A stretch of 32,840 nt of DNA, taken from the NCBI GenBank assembly GCA_029880245.1, contig JAOUOR010000017.1, forward strand, positions 1 to 32,840, written 5' to 3'. Source of the DNA: Alphaproteobacteria bacterium (GTDB taxonomy: Bacteria > Pseudomonadota > Alphaproteobacteria > Micavibrionales > Micavibrionaceae). The notes under the pieces were generated by a model. That model was not told the DNA's origin. It made no database searches and saw only the letters and a program-made list of their open reading frames with translations. Position numbers and translations under genes: made by a program. This document shows positions 1 through 26,440 of the stretch, in pieces (within the stretch, counting starts at the first letter, position 1; the number at the start of each line of letters is the position of its first letter).

Positions 1-1793
1 AACATTTCATCAACGACCAGGCCGCAAAGTTGCTGCATACCGTCATAGGGTTTGTCATAGCCCGGCGGCGTTGTTAGAAGAGTCAGAAGCTCCACAAGAT
101 AACTTCGTTCATCCGGCAAGGGATATCGGCAACCAAGTTGTGTGTCGAAGGGGTTAATCGCATATTGGTGCGCCATTTGCAGGCGGAAATAGGAGGCTTC
201 ATGCTGACGTTTGAGGGGCAGGGCCTCTTTGACAAGTGAGATCAGCCCTGAGGATGACGGACCAATATCGATTACTGCGACATAGGGCAGTTTGCTTAAG
301 CCTGGAGTTAAACATGTTCCGAAATTCAGTGTATTTAAAAGCACGGATTTACCACCGCCAGGTTGCGCGAAAATTAAATCAAACCAAGTGGTTGTCAAAG
401 TACTTCCTGTTTGATACGGCCAGATTTTTCCATCAGGCGTTCTGAAGAGCAAAGCGCCCTCTTCAAACGGGCTGGAGGGTCTTTGCCAAGGTAATAGCTT
501 TAATATTTCAAGCATTGGGGCTATACCGCTTGGTGCCGTTCCGCCACAATGAATACCCATTGCAGATGACATGACGCAATCAAGAGGATCGCCTGAAAAT
601 TCACTAACCTGACAATATCCCCAGCTTTCCAATGACTGCAAAAGAACAGATAGCCTGTCTAAAATCTGGTCTTTTTGACTTATCTTGCACCATGTGGCGA
701 AAGATACGCGGATTTTGACGACAGGCTCGCTGCGTGCCAGAGTAGTTAAGCTCTCCAATGAATATTTGATGAGTTTATTTGCTGAATTTGTAGGCCCTAA
801 TAAGGTTGCTGCAAATGTACGCATCGCCACAGCCGAAGCTCCTCCACCTTCAATCAGGAAGGATATACGAAACGGGATGTCGGCTTCGACGAGACGGTTA
901 AGTAAAACCGGGAAAGGTGTTGCGTCCATAGGGCCGAGTGTCATGTCGGCTCCGGCCCATAACAAATTTCCAATTCGAACGACAGATTTTCCAAGAACTT
1001 TTGCATCTGCCGCTGTAAGTTGGTCGGGTAGTTTCGGCCATAAAATATCCGACATATCGACAGTGCTTTTGGGCGCTCTGGGCGGGATAGGGTCTCCCGG
1101 CAGACAGGCGCGCCAGTGCTCATTGGCATGATCGGGGAATAAATTGTTTCGTACAGCTCTTAGCGCATCATGAACTTCTAATATATTGCATTCCACACTT
1201 AGCTCATCCAAAGAAGAGACCATAGCATTGATAAAGCTCTTGTGACGGGTTCTTAAAGGTTCCAGAATGCCTATTGGCATTTGTGCGTTTGGGGCATTAA
1301 ACCAGTTTTTTGCATCTTCTTTAGCTTCCTCAGCCGCTCTTTTCACTTCGTTTTTTGTAAGGCAAGATGGGCGTGTCCAAAGAACAAAATATGATTCTTC
1401 ATGTGTAAGAAATCGTTCAAGGTGATTAACTTTTTCTTCAAACACATCGTCAAGATCCATCCCTATATTTCTTGCGGTTGTACGGGAAGGGGCGATACCG
1501 GATTCCAATGTTGCACGAATTCTATCCGGGTCGCGGGAAAAATAGATCTGCATGGCATGACCTATACGGTCAAAGCGTGAACCAATTTTAATATTAGCAG
1601 AGTTCACAATGTTTTCGAACTCGTCATCCCCTATGATCTGTTTGCTTCCTTCGACTTTAACATATGTTACGAGCGAGCCGTCAGCGGCCACGAGCGTTGT
1701 GTCGTTCTCCATTGTTTCAAGGTTAATAAACGAAGAAACTGATTGTCTCAGGGCCTTTTGAAAGGGGGCAAGTAATTTATCTGCGTAGCTCAT
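1..1793 (-). CDS. dotO: DotO/IcmB-family T4BSS ATPase (VirB4-like), C-terminus beyond window
   Basis: About 597 N-terminal residues are visible, beginning MSYADKLLAP, and the frame stays open to base 1. I translated this by hand from the reverse strand. A Walker A box lies at about residues 476-483 (AQPGGGKS, lysine 482), preceded by TTWFDLIF and followed by a DIGPSSSG stretch, as in VirB4/IcmB-type ATPases. The first Walker A glycine is replaced by alanine. The family (IcmB in Legionella, TraU in IncI plasmids, both about 1000 residues) is an inner-membrane-associated ATPase that energises the type IVB channel together with DotB. Its position directly after dotN matches the icmJ-icmB order. 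A 168-nt AT-rich gap separates it from dotN, so it may have its own promoter. No strong Shine-Dalgarno precedes the ATG. The Walker B region is outside the window. Confidence 0.9.
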   Translation of the reverse strand, partial: MSYADKLLAPFQKALRQSVSSFINLETMENDTTLVAADGSLVTYVKVEGSKQIIGDDEFENIVNSANIKIGSRFDRIGHAMQIYFSRDPDRIRATLESGIAPSRTTARNIGMDLDDVFEEKVNHLERFLTHEESYFVLWTRPSCLTKNEVKRAAEEAKEDAKNWFNAPNAQMPIGILEPLRTRHKSFINAMVSSLDELSVECNILEVHDALRAVRNNLFPDHANEHWRACLPGDPIPPRAPKSTVDMSDILWPKLPDQLTAADAKVLGKSVVRIGNLLWAGADMTLGPMDATPFPVLLNRLVEADIPFRISFLIEGGGASAVAMRTFAATLLGPTNSANKLIKYSLESLTTLARSEPVVKIRVSFATWCKISQKDQILDRLSVLLQSLESWGYCQVSEFSGDPLDCVMSSAMGIHCGGTAPSGIAPMLEILKLLPWQRPSSPFEEGALLFRTPDGKIWPYQTGSTLTTTWFDLIFAQPGGGKSVLLNTLNFGTCLTPGLSKLPYVAVIDIGPSSSGLISLVKEALPLKRQHEASYFRLQMAHQYAINPFDTQLGCRYPLPDERSYLVELLTLLTTPPGYDKPYDGMQQLCGLVVDEM

Positions 1794-1820
1794 ATTAATT
1801 CTTTTTGCAGTATCTAGTTT

Positions 1821-1850
1821 ATTATAATTAAGCAGGGATTAAACATTAAA
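1821..1850 (-). promoter_or_regulatory. Possible promoter upstream of dotO
   Basis: On the minus strand a perfect TATAAT (1821-1826) is preceded, after 18 nt, by TTTAAT (1845-1850), a weak -35 match. It lies 28-57 nt upstream of the dotO start, in the only sizeable gap between dotN and dotO. This is motif matching in AT-rich DNA, so it is only a candidate. Confidence 0.25.
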
Positions 1851-1944
1851 GAGATAAAACATAATATAGCCTAGAAATTCTAATTCGTATAGAAAACATG
1901 ACAAAAAAGTATTTTTTTTATAGGTACGAAAAAATCACGGATAT

Positions 1945-1958
1945 TGCCCCGTGGGGCA
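1945..1958 (-). terminator. Short GC-rich hairpin after dotN, possible terminator or attenuator
   Basis: TGCCCCGTGGGGCA is a 14-nt perfect palindrome located 4 nt past the dotN stop codon. Read on the minus strand, a run of T follows about 14 nt later. The stem is short and the T-run is displaced, so it may only attenuate read-through into dotO or protect the transcript end. Confidence 0.35.
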
Positions 1959-1961
1959 TCA

Positions 1962-2672
1962 CTATGCTTGTATTTTGTGGTAGATGTCGAACCATTTTTG
2001 AGGTGTTTTACCTCCAAAAGGCCCGTCTTTAGAACGCCAATACGCCAGCATCTGAGGAAATTGATTAAATTCTAGATCAGCTTCTTTTACGATTCTGCGA
2101 TCCAGAGGGAAGAGACGTAACCCTTCCAGCTTTTTTTCTCTTTGTGCGTAATGATTGTCATTCAAATAATCTTTAAGCACAGTAGAAAGGATGTAAGGGT
2201 CATCCGTGCCAATTCTTTGTCTTACGACATCGCGTCTTTTCATGAGTGAGTCCAGTGCTCTACGTGATGCATCTGCTATAGGGCCCTGTGAAATGCGGGC
2301 AACATATATGGCTCTGGCCATATGGTGCAGATCACTTTGCGCGATTTCAGGCAACCAGAGTAAAACACCTGAGCGCATTTTGCTGACTTCTTCTATATGA
2401 AAACATTGATGGCAGAATATACAGACAGTCTTTAAGTTGTTCTCAGACCTGTCATTGGAATTACCATTTTTAAAAAGAACATCTTGATATTTTTTTGATT
2501 TAAACCCGCAGCAATTACAGACGTGATCGTCTTTTTCAAAAATTTTATTTTTTTCTTCTTTTGTCAGAGGTTTGCTTTTTCCAGCAGAAATGGAGCCGGA
2601 TTTTCCGGCTCCATTTTTTATAATTTTTCCAGTTGGTCTGGAAACACTTAAAGTTATGGACATTAAATCCAT
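1962..2672 (-). CDS. dotN: DotN/IcmJ-family protein with HNH-like zinc fold
   Basis: This 236-residue protein has a treble-clef-like cysteine and histidine set. CNCCG (Cys52, 54 and 55) is followed by CIFCHQCFH (Cys84, 87 and 90; His88 and 92). A helical region beginning LLWLPEIAQSDLHHM follows. Legionella DotN/IcmJ (about 208 residues) has an HNH-like zinc fold without nuclease activity and belongs to the DotL/DotM coupling complex that recruits substrates. The IncI counterpart is TraT. The gene starts 14 nt after dotP and precedes dotO, the icmD-icmJ-icmB order. ATG at 2672 is used; a second Met three codons in is an alternative start. A basic, glycine- and serine-rich N-terminal tail (residues 15-35) adds to the usual length. 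Motifs and synteny agree well. Confidence 0.85.
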   Translation of the reverse strand: MDLMSITLSVSRPTGKIIKNGAGKSGSISAGKSKPLTKEEKNKIFEKDDHVCNCCGFKSKKYQDVLFKNGNSNDRSENNLKTVCIFCHQCFHIEEVSKMRSGVLLWLPEIAQSDLHHMARAIYVARISQGPIADASRRALDSLMKRRDVVRQRIGTDDPYILSTVLKDYLNDNHYAQREKKLEGLRLFPLDRRIVKEADLEFNQFPQMLAYWRSKDGPFGGKTPQKWFDIYHKIQA

Positions 2673-2686
2673 ACTTATCTACTTAA

Positions 2687-3079
2687 TTAAAGTGTGTTGA
2701 ACTGAACAGCGTTCAACTGAGCAGCAGAAGAACCAAGACCAGCAGTACCTGATGTTACGAACATGGCTTCATAGATAATTGGAAGTGCGAATAATGCACC
2801 ACCAGCGGCCAAACGCATTGCACCATCTTTAAGAGGTGTCTGTGTTGGGTTTTCAACATGGTCTTTGATTTTCATGATACCAAGAACACCAAGAAGAATA
2901 CCGAACAGATATGCCAGAGCTGAAAGCAGAGCAGGCAATGCTGCGATAGAGTCTGTGATGTTAGATGCAATAGAACCGAAGTTGTTACCAGCCTGTGCTG
3001 AACCAGCAGAACCGGCAACCATACCTGCAGTCATAGCCGCACCGAGTTTATAATAAGAAAGTTGTGTTTTTTTGAACAT
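2687..3079 (-). CDS. dotP: DotP/IcmD-family small inner-membrane protein
   Basis: This 130-residue protein has an N-terminal signal peptide, with predicted cleavage after AQA at about residue 30. One copy of a two-helix unit follows at residues 45-106: LPALLSALAYLFGILLGVLG, then KIKDHVENP, then RLAAGGALFALP. IcmD/DotP in Legionella is of similar size (about 130 residues) and is a polytopic inner-membrane component of the Dot/Icm system. The same unit is repeated several times in the gene immediately upstream (3194-4834), so the two probably arose by duplication. A very strong Shine-Dalgarno and a 114-nt AT-rich leader suggest that this small protein is made at a higher level than its neighbours. 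Confidence 0.8.
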   Translation of the reverse strand: MFKKTQLSYYKLGAAMTAGMVAGSAGSAQAGNNFGSIASNITDSIAALPALLSALAYLFGILLGVLGIMKIKDHVENPTQTPLKDGAMRLAAGGALFALPIIYEAMFVTSGTAGLGSSAAQLNAVQFNTL

Positions 3080-3085
3080 AAGTGT

Positions 3086-3193: not shown

Positions 3194-4834
3194 TTAAGAA
3201 AATGCGACACCGAAAGCTGTAATACCGAGTGTGTTTTGGATGGCATTAAGGAGCGGCCCGAGATTAACAGCAAGCGCGCCGCCGATAATATGAGTCATAG
3301 CTACCATTATCGAAGATTGCTGCTGACCTTCTGCAACGCCCCTTATGATAAATAGGCCCCGCACAAAGCTGATAATTCCAATAATAAACATAAATCTGAG
3401 AACGGCATTAATGACGTGATATGTGGCTCCGGTTTCTGCGGCAGTCATGCCCCCAGCATATTTTAGGGTTGCAGTTGTGTTCGTAAAGGGACTTCCGAAT
3501 AAAGTTTCCGAGGCGGCCCGTAAAATGACGTTGGCTGACATGAGCAGACCTGCAATCACAAACGTTGTCACGGTGCCAATGCCGCCAGGGCCGCGAGGGC
3601 CTTCCTGTGCCGATTTAATTAATCTTGAAATGCCGATCATAACCAGAATAAGACCTGCGACAAAGCAAAAGTAATTTAATACAACATGTAGCGGCCCTTG
3701 AATATCGGTCATTAAACAGCCCATGGCTTCTTCCAGAGAATTATTGGGGCCGCAGGACAAAGCCGTAGTCGTTGTAAATCCGGTATTTGTACCAGCTAGT
3801 GTAAAGCCGGCCAGGGTGACAGGTGTCAATGAGATTTGTAATGTTGCCCCAACAAAAGGCATTGCGAAAAACGCGCCTGCTGCCAATAAGCGCATAACAC
3901 CTTCTGATAGTTTTGTTTGCATCGGGCTGAGGACATGATCGCGTATTTTTAAAATACCCCATAGGCCCATGGCCAAACCTATCAAATAAGAAAGACCCGA
4001 TAGAAACATAGGTAAAGAAATTGTATTCGCCATGCTTCTACATATGACAGTACCAAGCGTGGCTGATAATGAAGTGGCACAATCTGGAAGCCAACCGCCG
4101 GTTTCTGATGAGTTTAACATAGACCAGATATTAAATGTGCTGACCAAAAATCCAGCTATGCCCAGATTGCCACCGGTGATTGTAGTATACATGGCCCGAA
4201 ATACGGTGGGGAGGGCAAAAAGTGCGCCGGCAGTTAGTAACCGTATGACAGGCTCTTTCAGTTTGACCTGATCCGGTTCGTCGACATGTTCCTTGATGCG
4301 CAGGACACCGCTTATGGCCATGATAATACCCAGCAAATAACTAAGCGCAGAAACTAAAGCCGGCACATCATCGGTAAATATATCTATATTGATCAAAATA
4401 GAATCAAAATTTGTCCCTAATGAAGCAAGAGCACTTAATATGCCTAAAGCCCCAAAAACGTTGTTCATCATCGCCGAACTGTTGTCTGTCGGGTCGAAAG
4501 TCATTGCTCCGCCGCCACTAATTGTGTTTGTTGCGGCTTCGAATACAAGAGGCAGCGAAAAGAGGAAGCCCCCGACCAAGAGCCGTATAATTCCCTTTCT
4601 TAAGGGCGGTCTGGCTGTTTCCGGCATTGTAGCATGTTCCAGAATTTTAAAAATCCCCAGAACGCCAAATAATATACCCATTAAATAGGCAAGAGCGGAG
4701 GCTAGAGCCGGTAAATCCCTAGAAGAGTCAACCATATTCTCCGCTAAATCTTCTACGCCGAGCTGGGCGTAGGCAGGAGATCCCAGAAGGAGTGCCAATA
4801 AAAAAACTGAAAAGACAGAAATATAATGCCTCAT
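3194..4834 (-). CDS. DotE/IcmC-position membrane protein made of tandem IcmD-like repeats
   Basis: This 546-residue protein has a signal peptide (cleavage near AYA at residue 23) and many membrane segments. Three clear copies of the two-helix unit seen in DotP/IcmD lie at about residues 39-101, 155-216 and 272-332. Each has the pattern LPALxSALxYLxGI, an I(L)KI/RI-[KEL]-[ED]H-[VA] loop with a downstream proline, and then a GxxRLLxxGxxFxxP helix. Two degenerate copies follow at about 377-441 and 472-535. Legionella IcmC/DotE, which occupies this operon position, is only about 190 residues. I infer an inner-membrane component, either a fusion of several IcmC/IcmD-type modules or a repeat-expanded DotE. 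Connecting segments are glycine- and threonine-rich, and some carry cysteine pairs (251/265 and 361/373). The start has a good AGGAAG site. Confidence 0.7.
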   Translation of the reverse strand: MRHYISVFSVFLLALLLGSPAYAQLGVEDLAENMVDSSRDLPALASALAYLMGILFGVLGIFKILEHATMPETARPPLRKGIIRLLVGGFLFSLPLVFEAATNTISGGGAMTFDPTDNSSAMMNNVFGALGILSALASLGTNFDSILINIDIFTDDVPALVSALSYLLGIIMAISGVLRIKEHVDEPDQVKLKEPVIRLLTAGALFALPTVFRAMYTTITGGNLGIAGFLVSTFNIWSMLNSSETGGWLPDCATSLSATLGTVICRSMANTISLPMFLSGLSYLIGLAMGLWGILKIRDHVLSPMQTKLSEGVMRLLAAGAFFAMPFVGATLQISLTPVTLAGFTLAGTNTGFTTTTALSCGPNNSLEEAMGCLMTDIQGPLHVVLNYFCFVAGLILVMIGISRLIKSAQEGPRGPGGIGTVTTFVIAGLLMSANVILRAASETLFGSPFTNTTATLKYAGGMTAAETGATYHVINAVLRFMFIIGIISFVRGLFIIRGVAEGQQQSSIMVAMTHIIGGALAVNLGPLLNAIQNTLGITAFGVAFS

Positions 4835-4930: not shown

Positions 4931-4952
4931 TTTTGTGTTTTGCACTGCAATA

Positions 4953-6212
4953 TTACTGGCTTACAGAGCCGATTGAGCCTTTGACGACCCATTTTCCATT
5001 GATTTTGGAAATAGAGGTGATTCGTCCAATTCCGGGTACAAAATAGCCCGTTTCCACGGATTTAGTCTCGCCGGATTTTTTATTATACAGGACAGCACTT
5101 CCATTTTGTGCGGAGCGCAAAGCCCAGTCTGTCGCTTTATATTTACTAACCGGTTTTTGTGTGTTTTCGGGCTCTGATTTTGTCACTTTTTCGCTTGAAA
5201 CCACGGTTTGTTGTGGTTTTACTGTTTCTTTCACAGGTTCTTTCATCGCAGCAGGTTCTGGCGGAACTTCAATAATTTTTTCCTCCGAAACTTTCTGGGT
5301 CGTATCGGAATCTATTTGTGTTGGTGCTTCGACAGTCGGTGCAGGTACTATAGGTGCTTGTTCGTCCTGTTTTACGGGAGTATCAATAGCGGGCGTAATA
5401 TTTGTCTCTTTTACTGTCTTTGTATTTTCTTCCTTGAGATCAGTTGGAAGAGCGCTATGCTCTATTTCTGTTTTTTCGAGCATTACGTCTTCTTCCAAAG
5501 AAATAAGACCTTCTGATGGTGAATCTTGCACTGCAACAGTCTCATTTAATGTCTCGGAGCCCAGTTCAATTGAAGGTACATCAGGCGTTGGTGTATCATT
5601 TTCAGAAACTGACGGAATATCATCAAAAGGGGATACTGTGTCCGAAAATGGCTCTTCTGTTGGAATGGTTGGTTCCAGCTGGGCAAGTGTGGTGTTTTCA
5701 ATGGCGGCGGCATCAGGCATAGGGGTTAGCACACCCGGATCATTGTTAATTGCAGGTATATCTGCGATCGGATCAGCAGGATTTGCGTCGAATGCGGGAA
5801 TCTCCTGAGCTATATTATTGTCTGGTTGTGCTGTGATTGATTCCGTATCCGGATTTGTTGTCTTATCAAGAGCATTTTGAGTATCTTCCGGCATAACATT
5901 TTGTACAACAGGCGGATAGGAAACATCTGTAGATTGTTCACTGCTAAGTGTATAAAAATAAGCACCGCCGCCAGCCCCTCCCACTATAAGCAGGATCAGA
6001 ATCATTTTTGAACCGCCTGATGATTTCCGCTTTTTTGGGGAGGGTTCTAAATTTTCATCTTCTATATTCGTATTGTCGTCTGAGAAGTTCTCATCTTCCT
6101 CATCCAACCAGTCTTCATCATCTCCGGCCCATACTTCATCTTCGGCTGAATCGTCCATAAGATCCAGATTATCCAGAGAGTCATCATTTTCAGGCTGCGT
6201 GGGGTTATCCAT
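4953..6212 (-). CDS. DotF/IcmG-position bitopic envelope protein with PilP/GspC-like C-terminus
   Basis: This 419-residue protein has an acidic, probably cytoplasmic N-terminus (about 1-60, rich in Asp and Glu) and a basic stretch PSPKKRKSSGGSK. One membrane segment follows at about 71-88, then a long Pro/Glu/Thr-rich and apparently disordered periplasmic region (about 95-350). A compact C-terminal domain (about 358-419) carries WALRSAQNGSAVLY, VETGYFVPGIGRI and GKWVV. That last pattern resembles periplasmic PilP/GspC-type modules that bind secretins (inference). The topology and the place between dotG and the dotE-like gene match DotF/IcmG, an inner-membrane protein that connects the core complex. 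Legionella DotF is about 270 residues, so this one has an enlarged linker. The start lies 13 nt after dotG and has no clear Shine-Dalgarno, so translation may be coupled. Confidence 0.6.
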   Translation of the reverse strand: MDNPTQPENDDSLDNLDLMDDSAEDEVWAGDDEDWLDEEDENFSDDNTNIEDENLEPSPKKRKSSGGSKMILILLIVGGAGGGAYFYTLSSEQSTDVSYPPVVQNVMPEDTQNALDKTTNPDTESITAQPDNNIAQEIPAFDANPADPIADIPAINNDPGVLTPMPDAAAIENTTLAQLEPTIPTEEPFSDTVSPFDDIPSVSENDTPTPDVPSIELGSETLNETVAVQDSPSEGLISLEEDVMLEKTEIEHSALPTDLKEENTKTVKETNITPAIDTPVKQDEQAPIVPAPTVEAPTQIDSDTTQKVSEEKIIEVPPEPAAMKEPVKETVKPQQTVVSSEKVTKSEPENTQKPVSKYKATDWALRSAQNGSAVLYNKKSGETKSVETGYFVPGIGRITSISKINGKWVVKGSIGSVSQ

Positions 6213-6224: not shown

Positions 6225-7478
6225 TCAGATATCACTCTCTTCGTCAATGACCGGCGAAGTAAATAATACGCCCATAGGTGTTCCAGCACGTATTATGACG
6301 GTTGGCTCAACATCGGCGATATCATCTATAATTTCAGTAATTTCATCGGCGGCTTCCTCGATACCGGTTGCAACTTCCTGATCATTATCCGGCTCGCCTG
6401 TGCTTTCAACAACATTATCGCCTGAAACAATCACAGATGTTCGACCTGTCTCTGCTATGGCTCCGGCCATACCGCCTATAAAGGCAGATGCTGCGGGCAA
6501 AACAATTCGCTTGAAATAATGATTATTAACATCTGTAGCCATTCCAGCCAAAGTCGTATCCGGATCCAGCATTATGGCGCTAATTGGAACATCTTTTCCA
6601 TCAACCACAGCTGTTGTAAAGTTTACAACCAGATATTTATCTTCCTGAACTGTGAAGCTACCCATCATGCGGCTACCTTTTAGCGGCCCTGTTAAAAGAA
6701 GAGCCATAACGGGACCTTCTATGTCAGAGTTTGCTTCGAGCAACATTTGCGCATATTCAATTGTACCTGTCGGGATAATAATGGTTTCTTCAGTCTCTTC
6801 CTGAAACGCGCCTCCACCGTTACCATTAGGCGTAGGTCCTGCGCCGGGGCCGGTTCGTCCGGTTGTGTCATCGTCTTCGTAGTCAACCATACCGATATAA
6901 GTAAATGTGGCTTTTTCTGCGCGCCGTGTCAAAACGGATTCCATTTGCTTGCTCATAGACTCCGAGAGATTCTTGATCGCTTCGTTTTGTTGTTCTGAGT
7001 CAAGAACTGTAACGGCTTCCACGGATTGTCTTTCTCTCATTTCCCGTTCAACGCGCTCTTCTTGAATACGTCGCCATTTATGGAGAGGGTCTTCCTCTTC
7101 TTTCTTTTCCTCCGGCAATGTCAGACGCTCTTCCGGTGATTCTATAGGAACGGGAATAGCACTTTCTCCTGTTTGGATAGCTCTTTCCAGTTCATCTTCG
7201 TTTTTTTGTTCTACGGCCTCTACATAAGCAGGTGTTGCTTCATTTGTCCCTGGTGGCGCAGTAACTTTAGAGCCTTTAGGAATACTAGACGGGTTTTCTA
7301 CTTCTGCCGCGCCTCCAAAAAACCATGCTATTAGTATGATAACGCCCACGGCCAGAACAACAATCCCGACTTTAGCAGCAGGATTTGTTCTGATTACATC
7401 ACCCAGACTCGACTTTTGGACAAATTCATCGAATTCTCCGTCCGAGCCGATAATTTCTTCATCTAGATCATCATTCAT
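6225..7478 (-). CDS. dotG: DotG/IcmE (VirB10-like) core-complex protein
   Basis: This 417-residue protein has an acidic cytoplasmic N-terminus and one membrane helix at about 36-55. A charged, Glu/Arg-rich coil follows at about 95-190, including KWRRIQEERVEREMRERQ. The C-terminal half (about 235-415) is VirB10-like: a PTGTIEYAQMLLEANSDIEGP segment, then GPLKGSRMMGSF, then DPDTTLAGMATDVNNHY, and finally RAGTPMGVLFTSPV. In the family this domain forms part of the outer-membrane ring while the helix anchors the protein in the inner membrane. Legionella DotG (about 1050 residues) carries a large pentapeptide-repeat region that is absent here; this one is closer in size to IncI TraO. The start overlaps the end of dotH by 8 nt, which suggests translational coupling. 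The order dotI-dotH-dotG is canonical. Confidence 0.9.
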   Translation of the reverse strand: MNDDLDEEIIGSDGEFDEFVQKSSLGDVIRTNPAAKVGIVVLAVGVIILIAWFFGGAAEVENPSSIPKGSKVTAPPGTNEATPAYVEAVEQKNEDELERAIQTGESAIPVPIESPEERLTLPEEKKEEEDPLHKWRRIQEERVEREMRERQSVEAVTVLDSEQQNEAIKNLSESMSKQMESVLTRRAEKATFTYIGMVDYEDDDTTGRTGPGAGPTPNGNGGGAFQEETEETIIIPTGTIEYAQMLLEANSDIEGPVMALLLTGPLKGSRMMGSFTVQEDKYLVVNFTTAVVDGKDVPISAIMLDPDTTLAGMATDVNNHYFKRIVLPAASAFIGGMAGAIAETGRTSVIVSGDNVVESTGEPDNDQEVATGIEEAADEITEIIDDIADVEPTVIIRAGTPMGVLFTSPVIDEESDI

Positions 7479-8517
7479 CTAACATATCCTCATCAGTACT
7501 ACTCGCAGAAAGATAAACACGCATCATACGGCCTTTATCCGACAAAAGAACAACCGGTGTTTCTTCAAGGGCATACACTTTTGTACCATCGGCAGATGTA
7601 ACAGAGCTATCCCATGCAGGGGAAAGTAGTGCCAAAGGCGTTCTTACATAAGTCATACCATTGTAAATATAAGCTGTAGTGCGCCCGTCTGTTCCATTGA
7701 CATCAAGAATTTCAGCATCTTGTGGTATGACACCGCTCAACGCCAAGGACATGTCTGAATCACCTGCGGTCAGTTTGATTCCCGAATCAATAAGAGGTGT
7801 TTGTGCATAGGGCCCGTTTTGGGGAATAATGGCATCAAATCTATAATGAACTGAATCGCGTGCTGTTTCCAAAGTAAATACGACGGGTGTATCGAGGCCG
7901 ACGAGACGCATTGAAACATTACCATGCGCAAATTCTTTTTCCGGTGAAATTCTTACCATATTAGTGAAGTCTCTTGGGCTCTCCTCTTCAATCAGGAAAT
8001 CTCCAACCCAACTCATATCTTCAATTGGCCATGGCTTTCCTGTGTTATCCAGTATGCTTAGTGACGTCACATAACCAAAAGACAAACGTATCACTGGTGC
8101 AGGACTGCCCGGATCAAGGGATAAGTTTTCTACAAGAGATATGGGTCTTGGATAAGGATATACAGGGGTATTGGTGGATTCAATCGTCCGGTCATAGCGC
8201 TCCAATAACTCTCTTATTTCAGATGGCTTTAGGGGGAGCATTTTGTCCATGGCGCTTTTGAAAGCTTCTCGTCTAAAGTCCTGCTCTAGCTCTTCAGACG
8301 TTTTTTCAAATTGCAATCCACCAGTATCAAAATCAAAAACATCCTTAGTATCGCTATCAGGCTCTAGGGGGACTTCGTCGAGTTCGGACGGCAAGCCATC
8401 TTCTTGTGCAAAAACAGGCGCCGGTAAGGCCATAATGCCTACACAAACAACAAATAGCCCAATATATTTTAAAAGTGAGGACGAATGTCCGTGTGGAAAA
8501 CTATGTTTGTATTTCAT
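7471..8517 (-). CDS. dotH: DotH/IcmK outer-membrane core protein
   Basis: This 348-residue protein has a signal peptide ending near VFA (residue 37) and no lipobox. The middle and C-terminal parts match the DotH/TraN family: an acidic spacer, a helix ending MLPLKPSEIRELLERYD, then PYPRPISLVENLSLDPGSPAP, then a beta-rich region with SFGYVTSLSILDNTGKPWPIED. DotH joins DotC and DotD in the outer-membrane ring of the type IVB core, and its C-terminal part contacts DotG. Length is close to Legionella IcmK (about 360). It is encoded 118 nt downstream of dotI and overlaps dotG by 8 nt, the family's standard arrangement. Confidence 0.9.
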   Translation of the reverse strand: MKYKHSFPHGHSSSLLKYIGLFVVCVGIMALPAPVFAQEDGLPSELDEVPLEPDSDTKDVFDFDTGGLQFEKTSEELEQDFRREAFKSAMDKMLPLKPSEIRELLERYDRTIESTNTPVYPYPRPISLVENLSLDPGSPAPVIRLSFGYVTSLSILDNTGKPWPIEDMSWVGDFLIEEESPRDFTNMVRISPEKEFAHGNVSMRLVGLDTPVVFTLETARDSVHYRFDAIIPQNGPYAQTPLIDSGIKLTAGDSDMSLALSGVIPQDAEILDVNGTDGRTTAYIYNGMTYVRTPLALLSPAWDSSVTSADGTKVYALEETPVVLLSDKGRMMRVYLSASSTDEDMLDE

Positions 8518-11059: not shown

Positions 11060-11072
11060 CAGGAATATAGAA

Positions 11073-12530: not shown

Positions 12531-12552
12531 ATTGTGATTAAATGGTAAATTT

Positions 12553-13980: not shown

Positions 13981-13992
13981 GAGAAAAAACAA

Positions 13993-15324: not shown

Positions 15325-15333
15325 TCAAAGAGT

Positions 15334-19779: not shown

Positions 19780-19815
19780 TATATTAAAGTGAATGAGTGA
19801 AAAGGATATAAAATC

Positions 19816-21009
19816 ATGGCAGGTGTTTCGACTTTGGGTCAGGCATTACGGCAAATAGAGAATATTAAAGCTCAGCAAACGGCGTTTTCCGAGCTTTCCG
19901 TGCAGCTTGCAACCGGCAAAAAATCAGAGAATTTTTCGGGACTTAAGACAGATGCTCTGACATCTTTGAGAGCGCGCGATGGTGTGGAGTCTCTTGATAC
20001 GTATTTGAATAATATTTTGAAGGCTAATATACGCATTGAATTAATGCTTGATACAATAGAAGAGCAACAGGCGCAAACTTCAAATTTGGCTGATACGCTT
20101 TTGGCTTTTGTTCAAGAAGGTGGTCATCAGGAAGGTGACGATGTGGTTTATGATGATCCTGCCACTACGGTGATTGAAGAAACAGTTGTCGGTAAAACAT
20201 CGGCGAGACCAGATATTGATTTTCGTAATCTTCAGAATCAAGCTGAAAATCTGTTCGATTTTATGGTGGATCTACTCAATACCAAAGACGGGGATCGCTA
20301 TATTTTAGCGGGATCGGATAGTTTTACCAAACCAATTACGGATTCAGGAACGCTGGATGCGGCGGTTAGTACGCTTTTGACATCATGGAAAAACGGAACG
20401 ATTACCACAGATGAGCTTATCGCTGATATCAATGACAGGGATGCCTTAAGCGGCAATCCTGATGCTCTTACAGATACAATTATCGGCTATTCTTCTTCTT
20501 TAAGCTCTGGCAATACCGGTGATGTTTTTGTCCGCGTCGATGATGATAAAGAGCTGAAATATACGGCTTTGGCCAATGAAGATCCATTTAGAAATATTAT
20601 GGTGGCTTTGGCTGTTCTTAAAAACGATACTTTGCCGCCTGTGTTGGATGTCTATGAGAACGGGGTTTTTCCGGGCATACCGGATGAATTAGGAGCTCCT
20701 GGGGCCGATAAGAATGAGATGCAGGATAATTTTTACCGACTTTATAATGAGATTGTGAAAATGGTTGTGCATGCTATTGATGATGTGGATGAGGTGCGCT
20801 TTCGTTTGGAAACAACGAGGGCTCAAGCTGCCGAAACAAAAGAAAAACAGATATTGCAAAAGAACTTTTTGCTCACGACTATTTCTAATGTTGAGGATGT
20901 GGACATCAATAATGTTGCTGTAAAATTACAGGCTGTTCAGACCCAGCTCGAAACTTCCTATAGGGTAACAGCCATCACCAGCCAGCTTAGTCTCGTGAAT
21001 TTCCTGTAA
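19816..21009 (+). CDS. flgL: FlgL, flagellar hook-associated protein 3
   Basis: This 397-residue protein has the flagellin-like N-terminal helix (LGQALRQIENIKAQQTAFSELSVQLATGKK) and a middle NLFDFMVDLLNTKDGDRYILAGSD segment typical of FlgL/flagellin. The C-terminal helix (VKLQAVQTQLETSYRVTAITSQLSLVNFL) completes the pattern. With FlgK it forms the junction on which the filament grows. It is 36 nt downstream of flgK, the usual flgK-flgL pair. No other flagellar gene is in the window, so the pair is detached from the main flagellar cluster or at its edge. It converges on the TcpQ-domain gene, with a large inverted repeat in between. Confidence 0.93.
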   Translation: MAGVSTLGQALRQIENIKAQQTAFSELSVQLATGKKSENFSGLKTDALTSLRARDGVESLDTYLNNILKANIRIELMLDTIEEQQAQTSNLADTLLAFVQEGGHQEGDDVVYDDPATTVIEETVVGKTSARPDIDFRNLQNQAENLFDFMVDLLNTKDGDRYILAGSDSFTKPITDSGTLDAAVSTLLTSWKNGTITTDELIADINDRDALSGNPDALTDTIIGYSSSLSSGNTGDVFVRVDDDKELKYTALANEDPFRNIMVALAVLKNDTLPPVLDVYENGVFPGIPDELGAPGADKNEMQDNFYRLYNEIVKMVVHAIDDVDEVRFRLETTRAQAAETKEKQILQKNFLLTTISNVEDVDINNVAVKLQAVQTQLETSYRVTAITSQLSLVNFL

Positions 21010-21124: not shown

Positions 21125-22774
21125 CTATTTTACAAAAAGTGTTACACCGCTATCAGTTTCAACCAGATCATAATCAAGATTTTTAACTGTGTCTTGATCA
21201 AAGAGTATCTTTAGAGCATTACCAAAAGTTCCATTGATCAGGACATTTTGTTTGAGTGTTATTTTTTTGTCGGCTTGCCAATCAAGTTTTACATCAAGTT
21301 CTGAGCTCCATTTTTCAAGCAAGGCTTTGACATTGTTTCCGCTATTGGCATTCCAGACGTGCATTTTTGAATTGACGCGGGCGAGCGTTGTCTTTTGCTC
21401 TGTTGGAAGAGGGGCTTCTTTTGCCTTATTTTGCGCAGGAGATGGAGGAGGATTAAATGTTATATCTTCCGTATAAGGTTCGGTCTTAGTTTCAGGCATT
21501 GCTTCAAGCATAGGCATTGGCTCTTCTATTTCTTCTTTCATAGCCATTTCATCAACAGGGACTTTCATTGGAGCGTCCTGTTTTTTCGCAATTTTAATTG
21601 TCTCTGGATCCGAATCTTTTTCACCCATGACCTGCTTTATGATTTCATCTTGCGTTGATTCCACTTTGCCCGGATCAAGAATGACTTTGCGAGATATGGA
21701 TGATGTTTCATGTCCGGATGTCTTCGGCTTCGTCTCTTCCATAGAGTTTTCCGGTTTGGCGCTACTGGCAAGCATCTTAGGCTGAGTTTCAGGCTCTTTT
21801 ACTTCTGCGACAGGCTCTGGAATTTTTTTAACAGGTGTTATTATTTCGGGAGGCGCTTTTTTTATTTCCGGAGCGGATTGTATGATGGGCTCTTCTGATT
21901 TGTTTATTTCCTGCGGGGTCTCTTTGTAAATATGCAGTCTATTTCCCTTGATGTTATAGGAAATTCCTATGGGCGTTAAGGTCGAGGTTAAAACGTCATT
22001 CCAAGGTTTTTCACCTTCCCAAGAAACTTTTTGCCCCAGATTAATATCTTTACCGATAGAATAAGCATATTTTGAGGGTACAATTTGCCTTAGAGCCAAA
22101 ACCAGCGGCATATCAGACCCGAAGCCCTCAATGACATCGAATGTTTCAGTTGCGCTCCAAACGATCTTCTCGGCTTTTGCTTCGGGTGTTTCTTTTCCAG
22201 CGCCGGTTACAAGATCTTCGGCGTTCAGATCATCAAGGCTTTTTTCAGGATCGGAGGGTAGAATAACCGGCGTTAGATCAGCTGATGCGGAATTACTTGC
22301 GGCTTCATTGCCCATAGGAAAAAGGTCAACTTTTACTGCTTTTGTCTTATGTGTATTTGTTGCGGGTTCTACCACGTTTACTACGGGTGGGGGAGATTCT
22401 TCTTCTGGTTTTGGCTCTGCTATAACGGGCGGTGCTTGCTCTTCTTGCGCGGCAGGTATTTCTTTATCCGGCGTTAGGACCTTAATTTTCAATTTTGGTT
22501 TTTCGTTGGATTTGTCAATGACAGGCGGCAGTGATTTGTCAGTGACATGTGGAAGGTTTTTCATTATATTTTGAGGATCATCACCAAGCATTCCTTCATT
22601 CGCAGGATCAACCGGAACTGGAGACATTTTTTGTGGAGCAGGGCGCACAGGCTCGGGCGGAGGTGTCCATTCAAAGCCAGCACGAGTTACGCTCGCTCCA
22701 GCGCCTAGTAATAAGGATACAAGGGTTATAAGGCATGAGGAGTGCAAAAGTTTCCTGAATCTTTTAATGGGCAT
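21125..22774 (-). CDS. Secreted protein with STN-like and TcpQ/PilL-like domains
   Basis: This 549-residue protein has a signal peptide (hydrophobic about 12-27). A long Pro/Glu/Lys-rich linker (about 35-200) precedes an STN-like lobe at about 205-285 (MPLVLALRQIVPSKYAY, then VSWEGEKPWNDVL, then GNRLHIYKE). A second low-complexity linker (about 286-465) leads to a C-terminal TcpQ-type lobe at about 474-549 (HVWNANSGNNVKALLEKWS, then LDWQADKKITLKQNV, then FGNALKILF). TcpQ/PilL proteins help secretins or pilus machinery assemble in the outer membrane. Its position downstream of icmT matches the slot of traL in IncI plasmids, but I see no basis for calling it TraL. A role with the DotD/DotC/DotH ring or with the pilin-like genes is inferred. 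AGGAG lies 6-8 nt before the ATG. Confidence 0.72.
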   Translation of the reverse strand: MPIKRFRKLLHSSCLITLVSLLLGAGASVTRAGFEWTPPPEPVRPAPQKMSPVPVDPANEGMLGDDPQNIMKNLPHVTDKSLPPVIDKSNEKPKLKIKVLTPDKEIPAAQEEQAPPVIAEPKPEEESPPPVVNVVEPATNTHKTKAVKVDLFPMGNEAASNSASADLTPVILPSDPEKSLDDLNAEDLVTGAGKETPEAKAEKIVWSATETFDVIEGFGSDMPLVLALRQIVPSKYAYSIGKDINLGQKVSWEGEKPWNDVLTSTLTPIGISYNIKGNRLHIYKETPQEINKSEEPIIQSAPEIKKAPPEIITPVKKIPEPVAEVKEPETQPKMLASSAKPENSMEETKPKTSGHETSSISRKVILDPGKVESTQDEIIKQVMGEKDSDPETIKIAKKQDAPMKVPVDEMAMKEEIEEPMPMLEAMPETKTEPYTEDITFNPPPSPAQNKAKEAPLPTEQKTTLARVNSKMHVWNANSGNNVKALLEKWSSELDVKLDWQADKKITLKQNVLINGTFGNALKILFDQDTVKNLDYDLVETDSGVTLFVK

Positions 22775-22931: not shown

Positions 22932-23231
22932 TTAACCGTAGTCAATAAATCGGTGTTTTTGTACCCCTAAAAGACCTGAGCGCTTGCGGCCAACCATCCA
23001 TGAGCGGAAAGCCCTTAGGGCGGAAGGAAAACGGAGGCCTTTGTTTTCAAAGAAACGAAATACGTAGAAAATTATGAAGCTAATGATAATTGTCGACCAA
23101 CGCAAATAAAACAACCATACGGGAACGAGCAAGGCACATCTCCCATCAAAGCTGAGGAAGCGAACGGTTCGCATGGTATCACGCCAATGCCAGTTCATCT
23201 TTGCTTCGAGGTTTTCGAGTTCTTTTACCAT
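22932..23231 (-). CDS. icmT: IcmT/DotS-family membrane protein
   Basis: This 99-residue protein begins with a short charged leader, then the family-typical WHWRDTMRTVRFLSFDGR. A hydrophobic segment pair (about 33-60, ALLVPVWLFYLRWSTIIISF) follows, and then a basic ALRAFRSWMVGRKR tail. IcmT (Legionella, 86 residues; TraK in IncI plasmids) is a small inner-membrane Dot/Icm component. The dotD-dotC-dotB-icmT order equals traH-I-J-K of R64-type plasmids. The first ATG has AAGGA about 7 nt upstream and is preferred; the Met at residue 12 would bring the length closer to Legionella IcmT. The identification rests on a short motif plus exact synteny. Confidence 0.85.
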   Translation of the reverse strand: MVKELENLEAKMNWHWRDTMRTVRFLSFDGRCALLVPVWLFYLRWSTIIISFIIFYVFRFFENKGLRFPSALRAFRSWMVGRKRSGLLGVQKHRFIDYG

Positions 23232-23303: not shown

Positions 23304-24461
23304 TTATGAACCGGTGCTGGAGGATAAAACCAGATAAGAATGGCGATCAATCTGACCAGCCTCATAGGCGATCTCGGCCGAAGTCTGCATGCTTTGGCCA
23401 TATTGAGGGAGCATTCTTGTGATTTCATTGGCCCATTTTGTAAAATGCATATCCAGTAATCTTTCGCGAACATCATCAGGAAATTTCATCCACTCCCGTA
23501 CACCACAACGTCCACCATTAACGCGAGGAACAAGGGCTTGTGTAACAATCAGACGAAGGGTTTCTACAAGTGCGGTTGCGCGTTCCTCCCGCTCATCCAT
23601 TTCATAAGCAGAAATCATCCGTGAAACTGTGTTGGCAACACCCAGAGTGTGAGTTGTTGTATAGACGGCGTGACCTGTTTGTGAGGCTTCGATGGCGGCA
23701 TTGATGGTTTCCCGGTCACGGGCTTCGCCAACGAGGATAATTTCTGGTTTGCGCCGAAGGGCGTTACGCACACCCTTGGCAAAATCCGGCAGGTGCCTTG
23801 GTATTTCTGTCTGGGAAACCAAAGAGCGTGGGCTTTTAATCGAGTCATAAACATATTCAATAGGTGATTCGTAGGTTAGCATTTTGCCGCAGCCTCTCGG
23901 GCGTTCCAGTAGCATACGATTACCGGCGGCCAGCAAGGTACTCTTTCCTGATCCGGTTGGGCCTGTGACCACTACCAAGCCTTGTCGAGGCGCCCAGTTA
24001 TCGATGATTTCCTGCTCGATACTCAAATCTTTCATAGTGGGTGGATCGCTTGGAAGTGTTCGCATTGTAATCTGAGCGCCATCGCGGCCTTTTGATAGAA
24101 TTGCTGTGATGTTTACACGAAAGCGAATACGCGTATAGCGGTCGGGGCGGATTTCATAGGATACGTCAAGATCTTTGGCTGAAGCCAAACGGGCGCGTGC
24201 CTCGGGTCCATAGAGTTTTTCAAGGAAAACGCCTATATCGGCAGCATCAATTTCCCGAAATGTTCCAGGATAAAGATGCCCGCTTATATCGTTATAAACA
24301 GGACGATCACTTTGAATTGTAATATCGGACGAACCTTGTTTTACGCACCAGAGGAGGAAGTCATCCACATCATCTTGCGTAAACCTATTTGGCTCGTCGG
24401 GCCAGGTCTTCGCATGATCATCTTCAGCTTTGACAAGGCTTACCGGCTTGCGGGTTTCCAT
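23304..24461 (-). CDS. dotB: DotB, T4BSS traffic ATPase
   Basis: This 385-residue protein is close to Legionella DotB (377). It is a PilT/VirB11-type hexameric ATPase. Walker A is GPTGSGKS at 167-174. An Asp box lies near TYESPIEYVYD (about 196-206). Walker B is in the EIILVGEARD segment (about 240-249). The His box is TGHAVYTTTHT (262-272). The N-terminal domain (about 25-140) includes the SSDITIQSDRPVY typical of the family. DotB binds the inner-membrane complex through DotO and powers secretion. The start overlaps dotC by 22 nt, implying coupled translation. The canonical box has GEMRD; here alanine replaces methionine, a conservative change. Confidence 0.95.
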   Translation of the reverse strand: METRKPVSLVKAEDDHAKTWPDEPNRFTQDDVDDFLLWCVKQGSSDITIQSDRPVYNDISGHLYPGTFREIDAADIGVFLEKLYGPEARARLASAKDLDVSYEIRPDRYTRIRFRVNITAILSKGRDGAQITMRTLPSDPPTMKDLSIEQEIIDNWAPRQGLVVVTGPTGSGKSTLLAAGNRMLLERPRGCGKMLTYESPIEYVYDSIKSPRSLVSQTEIPRHLPDFAKGVRNALRRKPEIILVGEARDRETINAAIEASQTGHAVYTTTHTLGVANTVSRMISAYEMDEREERATALVETLRLIVTQALVPRVNGGRCGVREWMKFPDDVRERLLDMHFTKWANEITRMLPQYGQSMQTSAEIAYEAGQIDRHSYLVLSSSTGS

Positions 24462-25291
24462 TGTTTAGTTTCCGTGATAAGCGTAGGTACTCCGGTTATT
24501 TGCACAGCCCGGTCACCTATGCGCATTTGATCACCACGGCCTGTTACACCGCGGTCGAGTTGAAGAGCGTATGGCGGTGAAATCATACCTTGTGCTAAAA
24601 GCAGACGGTAACGTACCATACCCTCGAAATCTGTTGTTAATCTGGCAAGATCGCGCTCGAAAATTTCGTTAGCCTGAGAATAGCCATGATCCCAACCAAT
24701 CTTAATATGTTTATCCCATTCAAATTGTTCTTCCTCGTTTTGGGGCAACAGAATATCAGGCGGCGGAATGACTTCGCCCCATTCGCGTTCCAGATATTGG
24801 CGCCACATTCTAGGGGCAGAAACAATCTTGGCGTTACGCACAATATCATAAATTCTGTCTGAAACAGCAGCCGTCTGACCGCCTATATCAATGATCATGG
24901 CGTTTTGTGATTCAGAAATAATCGGTGGCTCGATCATAAAGCCTGAGGGCGCTGCGACTAGAAGCTGTGCAAAATTGAAAACACTATCAAGATAGCGCTC
25001 ACGGGTTTTAAGCTCCTTACGGATTTCATAGGTGCGTTTGGCTAATCCTCCACGCGCTCCAAAAGATGTAGCGGCTTCACGGACTGCATCAAGGCGTATA
25101 TCCAGAGGCAATGTGTTTTTAATGAATTCGCCCTGACCTTTGTAGGTCATAAGGGTCTCCATATCTACCGGCTCCATATCAATGTCGACTATTGGCTCTT
25201 CGGATTCCACGGGCAGGCCAGCATATCCTTTTTGATAAGGCGCTGGGAAAATAAGTATTGTCAGGATAAAAAACGCAAAAAATTTCCGCAT
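24440..25291 (-). CDS. dotC: DotC outer-membrane core protein, without lipobox
   Basis: This 283-residue protein carries DotC hallmarks: VREAATSFGARGGLAKR, FNFAQLLVAAPSGFMIEPP, PRMWRQYLEREWGEVIPPP, and NEEEQFEWDKHIKIGWDHGYSQANEIFERDLARLTTDFEGMVRYR (given here only as a landmark region, about 184-228). With DotD and DotH it forms the outer-membrane ring. Legionella DotC (about 303 residues) is a lipoprotein. Here the N-terminus has a hydrophobic signal (about 4-18, then GYAG) but no cysteine, so it is likely cut by signal peptidase I and not lipidated. Only 3 nt separate it from dotD, and it overlaps dotB. The family assignment is firm; the processing claim is an inference from sequence. Confidence 0.92.
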   Translation of the reverse strand: MRKFFAFFILTILIFPAPYQKGYAGLPVESEEPIVDIDMEPVDMETLMTYKGQGEFIKNTLPLDIRLDAVREAATSFGARGGLAKRTYEIRKELKTRERYLDSVFNFAQLLVAAPSGFMIEPPIISESQNAMIIDIGGQTAAVSDRIYDIVRNAKIVSAPRMWRQYLEREWGEVIPPPDILLPQNEEEQFEWDKHIKIGWDHGYSQANEIFERDLARLTTDFEGMVRYRLLLAQGMISPPYALQLDRGVTGRGDQMRIGDRAVQITGVPTLITETKQWKPASR

Positions 25292-25294
25292 GGT

Positions 25295-25828
25295 TTAGAT
25301 ATCCCCTTCTGGACCGGCAAGCCCTGAGTGCGGTGCATAATAGATTTCAACCATTTTGTTGCGGGCATCAACCTTAACGTCGCCACGCATGCCAAGTTGT
25401 AAACCAAGATCACGGAATGCATCAATTACGGGGGAATTCTCAAGATCAAGATATACAACAGCTTCGACAGCAGGCTTACTACCCATGACCACAAAACCAT
25501 ATCCGGCGCGATCAGCCAAAGTTTTTGCAATAGGCTCAATTGGACCAACCCAGTTTACCGTTACAGCTCGGCGTAGTTCAATGGGCGCATTATCTATCGG
25601 TGCCATAGGCACATTCGGTGTTTTTGCGCGCTCAACAGAGGCGAGTGTTTCCAGAGCAACTGAAGCGCGATTTGCTGATTCGGCAAGCATGGCCGAGACT
25701 TTGTCCGGGGATGCCACAAGCTGTGGGCTTCCTCCGCTGAAATTCGGATTGGACGATGTTCCTGAATAAGTACAGCCAGAAACAAACAAAATGCTAAGGA
25801 AAGAAGTAGTAAGAAGTTTACGTGACAT
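25295..25828 (-). CDS. dotD: DotD outer-membrane lipoprotein
   Basis: This 177-residue protein has a lipoprotein signal: hydrophobic residues, then LFVSGC with Cys19 as lipidation site. A Ser/Gly/Asn-rich spacer follows. The secretin-N1-like domain (about 85-170) is typical of DotD: TVNWVGPIEPIAKTLADRAGYGF, GSKPAVEAVVYLDLEN, then DAFRDLGLQLGMRGDVKV. DotD binds DotC and anchors the ring in the outer membrane; the IncI counterpart is TraH. I chose the ATG giving MSRKLL rather than a TTG eight codons upstream, because it places the signal peptide at the very start and has AGGG upstream. It heads the dotD-dotC-dotB-icmT run. Confidence 0.92.
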   Translation of the reverse strand: MSRKLLTTSFLSILFVSGCTYSGTSSNPNFSGGSPQLVASPDKVSAMLAESANRASVALETLASVERAKTPNVPMAPIDNAPIELRRAVTVNWVGPIEPIAKTLADRAGYGFVVMGSKPAVEAVVYLDLENSPVIDAFRDLGLQLGMRGDVKVDARNKMVEIYYAPHSGLAGPEGDI

Positions 25829-25875
25829 AGTTATTTTTACCCTACAAGCCAATAAGACAATTAAGCCTTTTATAA

Positions 25876-25904
25876 ATACTAGACAATATTGATCAGTAAA
25901 TCAA
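25876..25904 (-). promoter_or_regulatory. Candidate promoter of dotD-dotC-dotB-icmT
   Basis: On the minus strand TTGATT (25899-25904) and TAGTAT (25876-25881) are 17 nt apart, each matching the sigma-70 consensus at four of six positions. The -10 element lies about 48 nt before the chosen dotD start. This is the best pair in the gap between dotD and the transglycosylase gene, but AT-richness makes chance matches likely. Confidence 0.3.
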
Positions 25905-26023
25905 GAATAAGTGCAAAATAATTATCGCATGGGAACAAAATTTTGTAATTATATGTGCTTTGTATCCCGTTATTCTAAAGTGTATGATATTTCCATACTC
26001 ATTTTTATTATCGTGTATAATGT

Positions 26024-26440
26024 CTAGCGACCTGTTTTTATTAGACCATTTTCATACATTATGTCAAGAACACGTTGTTTATATTTCATTCCGTAACGGG
26101 GCGTTCTCGAATGATAATGCTGCAAGGCCTGCGATAGGCTTTGTGTCTCATTGATGTGGTTACGCAAAATCCAGGCTGCAACTTTTGTATTTATACAGGC
26201 ATCATCGCGCACCATTTTATGGGCTTTGTCTTCGCTTACTTTCCATCGTTTGGCAAGTTCGGGGAGCCAGACTGTATTTATTTGCATAGGACCAAGATCA
26301 TGTGAGCCGTTTTCATTGGCAACTTCCTGCCCTATTTTGCCACCTTCTGCCTTATATATGCCAACCATTAAGGCGGGCGGCACGTTATAAGTCTGGGAAG
26401 CCATCATCAAACACGCAGCAATAATTTTGGTTGCGGACAT
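26024..26440 (-). CDS. Lytic transglycosylase, SLT domain only
   Basis: This 138-residue protein consists almost entirely of a soluble lytic transglycosylase fold. ALMVGIYKAEGG contains the catalytic glutamate (Glu32), followed by ENGSHDLGPMQINTVWL (the GxMQIN motif at 50-55) and a later ALQHYHSRTPRYGMKY segment. Such enzymes cleave peptidoglycan with 1,6-anhydro product formation and open a path for secretion systems and pili (VirB1-type role). It lies upstream of dotD on the same strand, about 195 nt away. A stop codon immediately precedes the ATG, so it cannot be extended, and no convincing signal peptide precedes the domain. Export would need a non-standard route or an uncleaved N-terminal helix. 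Confidence 0.85.
   Translation of the reverse strand: MSATKIIAACLMMASQTYNVPPALMVGIYKAEGGKIGQEVANENGSHDLGPMQINTVWLPELAKRWKVSEDKAHKMVRDDACINTKVAAWILRNHINETQSLSQALQHYHSRTPRYGMKYKQRVLDIMYENGLIKTGR

What the first reader, a model, noticed from the sequence alone, without database searches (positions are those of the whole stretch)
1..26440. Dot/Icm (type IVB) secretion locus with IncI-like gene order on an apparently alphaproteobacterial chromosome
Ten components are recognisable by motif (dotO, dotN, dotP, dotG, dotH, dotI, icmT, dotB, dotC, dotD) plus two position-based ones (dotF- and dotE-like). Reading the minus strand, the order dotD-C-B-icmT then dotI-H-G-F-E-P-N-O matches IncI tra (traH-I-J-K, traM onward) better than the scattered Legionella regions. 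Flagellar, fatty-acid and cold-shock genes nearby argue for a chromosome. Whether it is conjugative or an effector exporter is open; DotL, DotM and DotA are not in view.
Basis: partly seen in the sequence, partly recalled or inferred. Interest (0 to 1): 0.75.

Follow-up and report, generated by a model that had tools for sequence, protein, structure and literature searches.

The report
Dot/Icm secretion machine in Micavibrio-type bacteria
A whole order of small, partly bacteria-eating bacteria (Micavibrio and relatives) carries on its chromosome a Legionella-type injection machine whose two gate proteins have been multiplied into families, which points to an overlooked tool for attacking other cells, although its targets are not yet shown.

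Summary
HMMs confirm DotB, DotC, DotD, DotG, DotH, DotI, DotN, IcmT and a DotE/TraQ-type protein; DotO, DotP and DotF rest on weaker or comparative evidence. The contig begins inside dotO. The host is a Micavibrionales bacterium. DotM, DotL and three DotA genes lie elsewhere in the genome. DotO, DotM and DotA occur in 55-57 of 58 relatives, dotO in one syntenic copy, so this is a vertically inherited chromosomal system, not a plasmid. A MOBP relaxase and VirB-type genes lie on other contigs. The linkage of dotDCB-icmT with dotI...O is IncI-like, but DotB groups with Legionella, not with IncI/K/L/M plasmids (99/99). Profile chains identify them as remote IcmX/TraW (VirB5-like) homologues. In Legionella, DotA and IcmX form the pentameric gate; in the window's family there are three DotA and about two to six IcmX-like genes. 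One complete genome with the full set matches Micavibrio aeruginosavorus, for which a 2011 paper reported no type IV system. Most likely it is a contact-dependent exporter, plausibly into prey, with a paralogue-built gate. Substrates and targets are unproven.

The parts
3..1793 (-). dotO (icmB/traU, VirB4-type ATPase), 5' 597 codons; gene cut by the contig start
   Evidence: full-length syntenic homologues of about 1000 aa in 56 of 58 relatives; weak TIGR00929; 26-43% to TraU/DotO on plasmids
1962..2672 (-). dotN (icmJ/traT), HNH-like zinc protein of the coupling complex
   Evidence: NF038221 4e-27
2687..3079 (-). dotP-like (icmD/traR) small double-TM protein
   Evidence: position; DUF6750 0.026 below cut-off; 39-46% identity to three modules of the next gene
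3194..4834 (-). dotE/traQ-like protein built of three DotP-like modules plus a C-terminal TraQ module
   Evidence: NF033883 TraQ 1.5e-14; DUF6750 5e-6; internal modules
4953..6212 (-). dotF-like (icmG/traP): one TM helix, acidic/proline-rich middle, conserved C-terminus
   Evidence: position between DotG and DotE; conserved C-terminus order-wide; no HMM match
6225..7478 (-). dotG (icmE/traO, VirB10 type), short IncI-like length
   Evidence: NF033900 6e-49, NF033884 TraO 3e-28; PF03743 2e-11
7471..8517 (-). dotH (icmK/traN) outer-membrane core
   Evidence: PF12293 3.6e-71
8636..9355 (-). dotI (icmL/traM) inner-membrane protein
   Evidence: PF11393 1.2e-63; NF038072 over cut-off
9356..9559 (.). 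AT-rich divergent intergenic region between dotI and the IcmX-like array
   Evidence: sequence read; no promoter tested
9560..11059 (+). IcmX/TraW-like paralogue A (hydrophobic N-terminus, Cys-rich)
   Evidence: family alignment; profile link to IcmX/TraW; orthologue group A
11073..12530 (+). IcmX/TraW-like paralogue B
12553..13980 (+). IcmX/TraW-like paralogue C
13993..15324 (+). IcmX/TraW-like paralogue D
15334..17313 (+). IcmX/TraW-like paralogue E with N-terminal extension
   Evidence: its group also holds one G033 and one G035 copy (SH-aLRT 93)
17383..19779 (+). flgK (hook-associated protein), conserved neighbour
   Evidence: PF22638 6e-33; next to the array or dotI in several families
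19816..21009 (+). flgL (hook-associated protein), conserved neighbour
   Evidence: PF00700 2e-6
21125..22774 (-). secreted protein with a C-terminal TcpQ domain, candidate extra outer-membrane component
   Evidence: PF10671 1.8e-8 over cut-off; syntenic in relatives
22932..23231 (-). icmT/traK
   Evidence: NF038220 1.1e-19 over cut-off
23304..24461 (-). dotB (traJ) secretion ATPase
   Evidence: TIGR02524 7e-115 against TIGR02525 TraJ 1e-72; tree
24440..25291 (-). dotC (traI)
   Evidence: PF16932 8.3e-77
25295..25852 (-). dotD (traH) lipoprotein
   Evidence: PF16816 1.1e-29; NF033882 5e-25
26024..26440 (-). SLT lytic transglycosylase (VirB1/TrbN-like)
   Evidence: PF01464 1.4e-7; NF010463 TrbN 1.8e-25

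Best explanation
The locus is the main cluster of a complete, chromosomal, vertically inherited type IVB (Dot/Icm-lineage) secretion system of Micavibrionales. Shown: apparatus genes here (DotB, C, D, E/P, F, G, H, I, N, O and IcmT), with DotM, DotL and three tandem DotA genes elsewhere in the genome; near-universal conservation in the order; five tandem paralogues at 9560-17313 that share remote homology with IcmX/TraW. Inferred: DotO and DotB power it, DotL-DotM-DotN recruit substrates, DotC-D-G-H form the outer-membrane core, and a DotA-IcmX type protochannel opens on contact with a target cell. In the window's family that gate can be built from three DotA and about two to six IcmX-like subunits, so it may be heteromeric or come in several versions. 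The likely purpose is contact-dependent export of protein into other cells, most plausibly bacterial prey, rather than conjugation.
For: Apparatus HMMs. DotM NF033890 1.8e-42 and DotL-type NF041447 7e-118 adjacent on G000:C34. DotO in 56 of 58, DotA in 57 of 58 and DotM in 55 of 58 relatives across seven families, with syntenic clusters. Three tandem DotA in almost every genome of the window's family; a single match in most genomes of f2 and in some of f3, f5 and f7, with more matches or fragments in others; the family-1 DotA set is one clade, 100/99. IcmX link: divergent members against TraW/IcmX score 55.8, E 1.6e-6, against a maximum of 21.9 in 30 column shuffles and about 16 for reversed profiles; an ORF in the TraW position, just before DotA, in genome G344 is the top hit of the array profiles (2e-10, 3e-13) and, after the TraW and IcmX rows themselves, of the TraW/IcmX profile (4e-8). 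Legionella DotA and IcmX sit in 9ngy and 9nh0 with 10 chains each over two entries, and a review describes them as a pentameric protochannel (PMC12857230). Relaxase hit only on another contig, C25, and VirB-type genes on C7. DotB tree with Legionella 99/99. G033, a single 2,458,610-base contig carrying the main cluster, three DotA and DotM-DotL, has ORFs of 559, 501 and 2859 aa at the places where M. aeruginosavorus ARL-13 has GMV0092 (559), GMV0093 (495) and GMV0107 (2892).
Against: No substrate, chaperone or target was found; the search for IcmW was empty and had no positive control. A T4BSS can move DNA, and the genome does hold a MOBP relaxase on C25. The f1 array matches TraW/IcmX only through intermediates, not directly (Prob 0.8%). 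Many genomes of other families show no array match, so they either lack these genes or have ones too divergent to see. Predation is documented for M. aeruginosavorus, not for the uncultured members.
Confidence: 0.6

Rival explanations
1. It is a conjugation or DNA-transfer system (an IncI-like element fixed in the chromosome) that still moves DNA, possibly mobilising elements such as the one on C25.
For: The linked dotDCB-icmT...dotI-O order and short DotG resemble IncI. DotL-type NF041447 is named for conjugative TrbC. A MOBP relaxase is in the genome.
Against: No relaxase hit in the window; the one PF03432 hit lies on C25 with its own VirD4-like gene and there is a VirB-type set on C7. One syntenic copy across an order is unlike a mobile element. 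DotB is of the Legionella branch.
Confidence: 0.15
2. It is an exporter aimed at eukaryotic cells such as protists, as in Legionella, rather than at bacterial prey.
For: The closest characterised relatives by DotB phylogeny act on eukaryotes (plus own knowledge).
Against: The cultured member is an epibiotic predator of bacteria (PMC3189940), and the system is kept across the order.
Confidence: 0.15
3. The five tandem paralogues are not gate subunits but secreted substrates or surface adhesins that merely sit next to the system.
For: Divergent operon, diversified tandem copies with hydrophobic N-termini and Cys-rich starts, no Pfam or PDB match.
Against: Profile link to TraW/IcmX with a bridging ORF next to DotA; no separate IcmX/TraW was found in the six genomes tested; positional orthology over two genera.
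Confidence: 0.25

Closest known systems
[quoted passage not shown]
   Same: DotA, B, C, D, E, F, G, H, I, L, M, N, O, P and IcmT homologues; DotB phylogeny; DotI..O gene order; a DotA-IcmX type gate
   Different: dotDCB-icmT linked to the rest; short DotG; fused DotE/DotP modules; three DotA; several IcmX-like genes; a TcpQ-domain protein and flgKL inside; IcmW not detected (uninformative test)
IncI1 (R64-type) tra/trb conjugation system
   Same: traH-I-J-K and M-N-O-P-Q-R-T-U order; short TraO-like DotG; TraQ-type module
   Different: no shufflon, primase or relaxase in the window; chromosomal; DotB clearly outside the IncI/K/L/M clade; traW/traY counterparts multiplied and moved
T4BSS cluster in another alphaproteobacterial genome (G344, L216)
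   Same: same components with icmT, DotI-O, and a linked IcmX/TraW-like ORF and DotA
   Different: one IcmX-like ORF and one DotA in IncI-like positions in the 20 kb seen; DotO only 36% identical

Membership tests
Type IVB (Dot/Icm, MPF_I) secretion systems | DotH/IcmK, DotI/IcmL, DotC and DotD core proteins | tested here: met
   PF12293, PF11393, PF16932, PF16816
Type IVB (Dot/Icm, MPF_I) secretion systems | DotB and DotO ATPases | tested here: met
   TIGR02524 7e-115, below the equivalog cut-off; DotO by homology and synteny, cut in the window
Type IVB (Dot/Icm, MPF_I) secretion systems | DotL-DotM-DotN coupling complex | tested here: met
   DotN in window; DotM and DotL on C34; DotM in 55 of 58 relatives
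Type IVB (Dot/Icm, MPF_I) secretion systems | DotA/TraY | tested here: met
   three copies in G000; profile of the family matches Legionella DotA 9ngy at 1.8e-127, though the profile holds DotA/TraY rows too
Type IVB (Dot/Icm, MPF_I) secretion systems | IcmX/TraW | tested here: inconclusive
   direct search empty and direct profile comparison negative; remote homology of the array through intermediates
Legionella-type effector exporter | IcmS/IcmW adaptors | tested here: inconclusive
   IcmW search empty without a positive control; IcmS not searched
IncI conjugative system | linked relaxase and oriT | tested here: not met
   PF03432 hit only on another contig, C25; oriT was not searched
IncI conjugative system | DotB/TraJ groups with IncI-type TraJ | tested here: not met
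   Micavibrionales group with Legionella, 99/99
IncI conjugative system | location on a plasmid | tested here: not met
   single syntenic copy in almost every genome of the order; G033 is one 2.46 Mb contig

The most novel reading that the evidence does not exclude
A type IVB machine has been turned into a weapon for bacterial predation, and its homopentameric DotA-IcmX gate has been replaced in the Micavibrio family by a heteromeric gate made of three kinds of DotA and up to about six kinds of IcmX-like subunit.
Probability: 0.3. Interest if true: 0.88.

Novelty: new variant of a known kind. Interest (0 to 1): 0.7.

Why it matters
How Micavibrio-type predators damage their prey is unknown, and the ARL-13 genome paper reported no type IV secretion system (PMC3189940). 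A conserved Dot/Icm machine in nearly every genome of the order supplies a concrete, knock-out-testable candidate. The three DotA and several IcmX-like genes bear directly on how the recently solved DotA-IcmX gate is assembled and gated. I found no paper in the held library that links Micavibrio or Micavibrionales to a type IVB secretion system; the library is incomplete.

Tried and rejected
Pfam, NCBIfam, PHROGs, PADLOC and PDB sequence searches with the array proteins gave nothing usable. Thin IcmX/TraW profiles against the array gave nothing, and the large f1 profile against TraW/IcmX gave 0.8%; only divergent members and a bridging ORF linked them. IcmW was not found, without a positive control. 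Search terms 'dot icm' do not match 'Dot/Icm', so one search shows nothing. The hits for Micavibrio plus 'type IVB' lead with a paper on type IVb pilins; I did not open all eleven. Rejected: a plasmid or recent mobile element, and an IncI-clade origin of DotB. In one search only large ORFs were printed around 85-125 kb, so gene order between the landmark ORFs was not checked.
Full report
WHAT IS THERE. The window is the whole of contig C85 of a 2.15 Mb genome. On the minus strand it carries a type IVB secretion cluster: SLT transglycosylase, dotD, dotC, dotB, icmT, a TcpQ-domain protein, then, after a plus-strand block, dotI, dotH, dotG, dotF-like, dotE-like, dotP-like, dotN and the first 597 codons of dotO, cut by the contig start. 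HMM support is strong for DotB, C, D, G, H, I, N and IcmT, moderate for the DotE/TraQ module, and by position and conservation for DotF, DotP and DotO. Several equivalog models score below their curated cut-offs (DotB, DotD, DotG, DotN), as expected for a divergent branch.

WHOSE IT IS. The nearest named relatives are Micavibrio sp. and Alphaproteobacteria MAGs. NCBI files Micavibrio under Bdellovibrionota, but the genome collection groups the window with genomes titled Alphaproteobacteria, and I follow that.

CHROMOSOMAL AND VERTICAL. DotO is found in 56 of 58 relatives over seven families, almost always one copy, DotM in 55 of 58 and DotA in 57 of 58. The cluster is syntenic in genomes of several families, including single-contig ones, although in some f7 genomes it is split. 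DotH also occurs in 16 of 385 genomes sampled from the class, including the window's own and three more of its family, and the others show the same dotI-to-dotO order where enough sequence was held.

MISSING PARTS FOUND. DotM, a 198-residue protein and DotL are together on G000:C34, and the same trio is in G009 and G033. DotA is on C124 (two) and C99 (one) in G000, in contexts that look contiguous by comparison with G009. A PF03432 relaxase lies on C25 with recombinase-like and VirD4-like genes, and VirB-type genes lie on C7, so conjugation genes form a separate set.

THE TANDEM FAMILY. Between dotI and flgK five plus-strand paralogues (33-48% identical to each other) fill 9560-17313. They form five positional orthologue groups across two genera, so the duplications are old. 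The full f1 profile does not match TraW/IcmX (0.8%). Divergent members from families f2 and f7 and from G014 match the f1 profile at 99.9%, E 7e-37, and match a profile of nine TraW and one IcmX at Prob 90, E 1.6e-6, score 55.8 over 378 columns, against at most 21.9 in 30 column shuffles and about 16 for reversed profiles. A combined profile scored lower, 37.3. In genome G344 an ORF immediately before DotA, where TraW would be expected, is the best hit of the array profiles and scores 4e-8 with the TraW/IcmX profile. I take remote homology to IcmX/TraW as likely, about 0.75, not proven. E-values in these local searches refer to small ORF sets.

THE GATE. The PDB holds Legionella DotA and IcmX with ten chains each over two entries, and a review describes them as a pentameric protochannel that opens for translocation (PMC12857230). 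In the window's family almost every genome has three DotA genes; one genome, G035, gave none, which I did not resolve. In other families the number is often one, but several genomes of f3, f4, f5 and f7 gave two to five matches, some of them fragments of one gene. IcmX-like copy number in the window's family runs from two to about six by matches. So a gate of mixed subunits, or several gates, is possible. This is inference.

IncI OR DOT/ICM. The linkage dotD-C-B-icmT plus dotI..O is shared with IncI. The dotI..O part is also the Legionella order (own knowledge). DotB of Micavibrionales joins Legionella at 99/99, apart from five plasmid TraJ at 97/93, with PilT-like rows as outgroup; only one Legionella sequence was available and branches are long.

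MICAVIBRIO AERUGINOSAVORUS. G033 is one contig of 2,458,610 bases. ORFs of 559, 501 and 2859 residues at 85-108 kb match in size, order and place GMV0092 (559), GMV0093 (495) and GMV0107 (2892) of strain ARL-13; I did not compare sequences, as none of ARL-13 was at hand. The size differs from ARL-13 (2,481,983) and agrees, from memory, with strain EPB. G033 has the cluster, at least two array genes, three DotA and DotM-DotL. The ARL-13 paper states there is no evidence of a type III or IV system; if ARL-13 is like G033, that was missed.

FUNCTION. Shown: an apparently complete, conserved machine. Inferred: export on contact, most plausibly into prey bacteria. Not shown: substrates, chaperones, expression, targets. 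The flgK-flgL neighbours, conserved in several families and in two genomes outside the order, fit but do not prove joint control with the motile attack phase.

LIMITS. The held paper library is partial. Many counts come from draft genomes, where matches can be fragments.

Noticed in passing
window 26566-28262 (-): An acyl-CoA ligase (AMP-binding) gene is split into two overlapping frames, 27258-28262 and 26566-27282, each matching complementary parts of PF00501: a frameshift in the genome or an assembly error.
   Followed up: no
window 29097-32839 (+): Two large proteins, 435 aa and 818+ aa, with prepilin-type N-terminal methylation motifs; the second runs off the contig.
   Followed up: no
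window 3194-4834 (-): One protein holds three DotP-like modules and a TraQ-like module; in G047 (L061) similar modules occur as separate short genes.
   Followed up: partly
window 17383-21009 (+): flgK and flgL sit inside the secretion locus in several families and next to dotI in two genomes outside the order (L206, L215).
   Followed up: partly
window 1962-2672 (-): DotN shows weak similarity to HNH nucleases of IscB and ZorE (1e-3 range).
   Followed up: no
L236 (G009:C2 586774-587598) and L235 (G033:C1 393432-394205): A protein with a prepilin-like N-terminus directly follows dotL in both genomes.
   Followed up: no
L222, Methylorubrum extorquens AM1 megaplasmid: A DotO homologue 43% identical to the window's, on a megaplasmid typed MPF_I, without other window-gene matches in the 42 kb seen.
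   Followed up: partly
L059, G000:C7: A separate VirB-like gene set with a PF12696 coupling-protein fragment lies on contig C7 of the same genome.
   Followed up: partly
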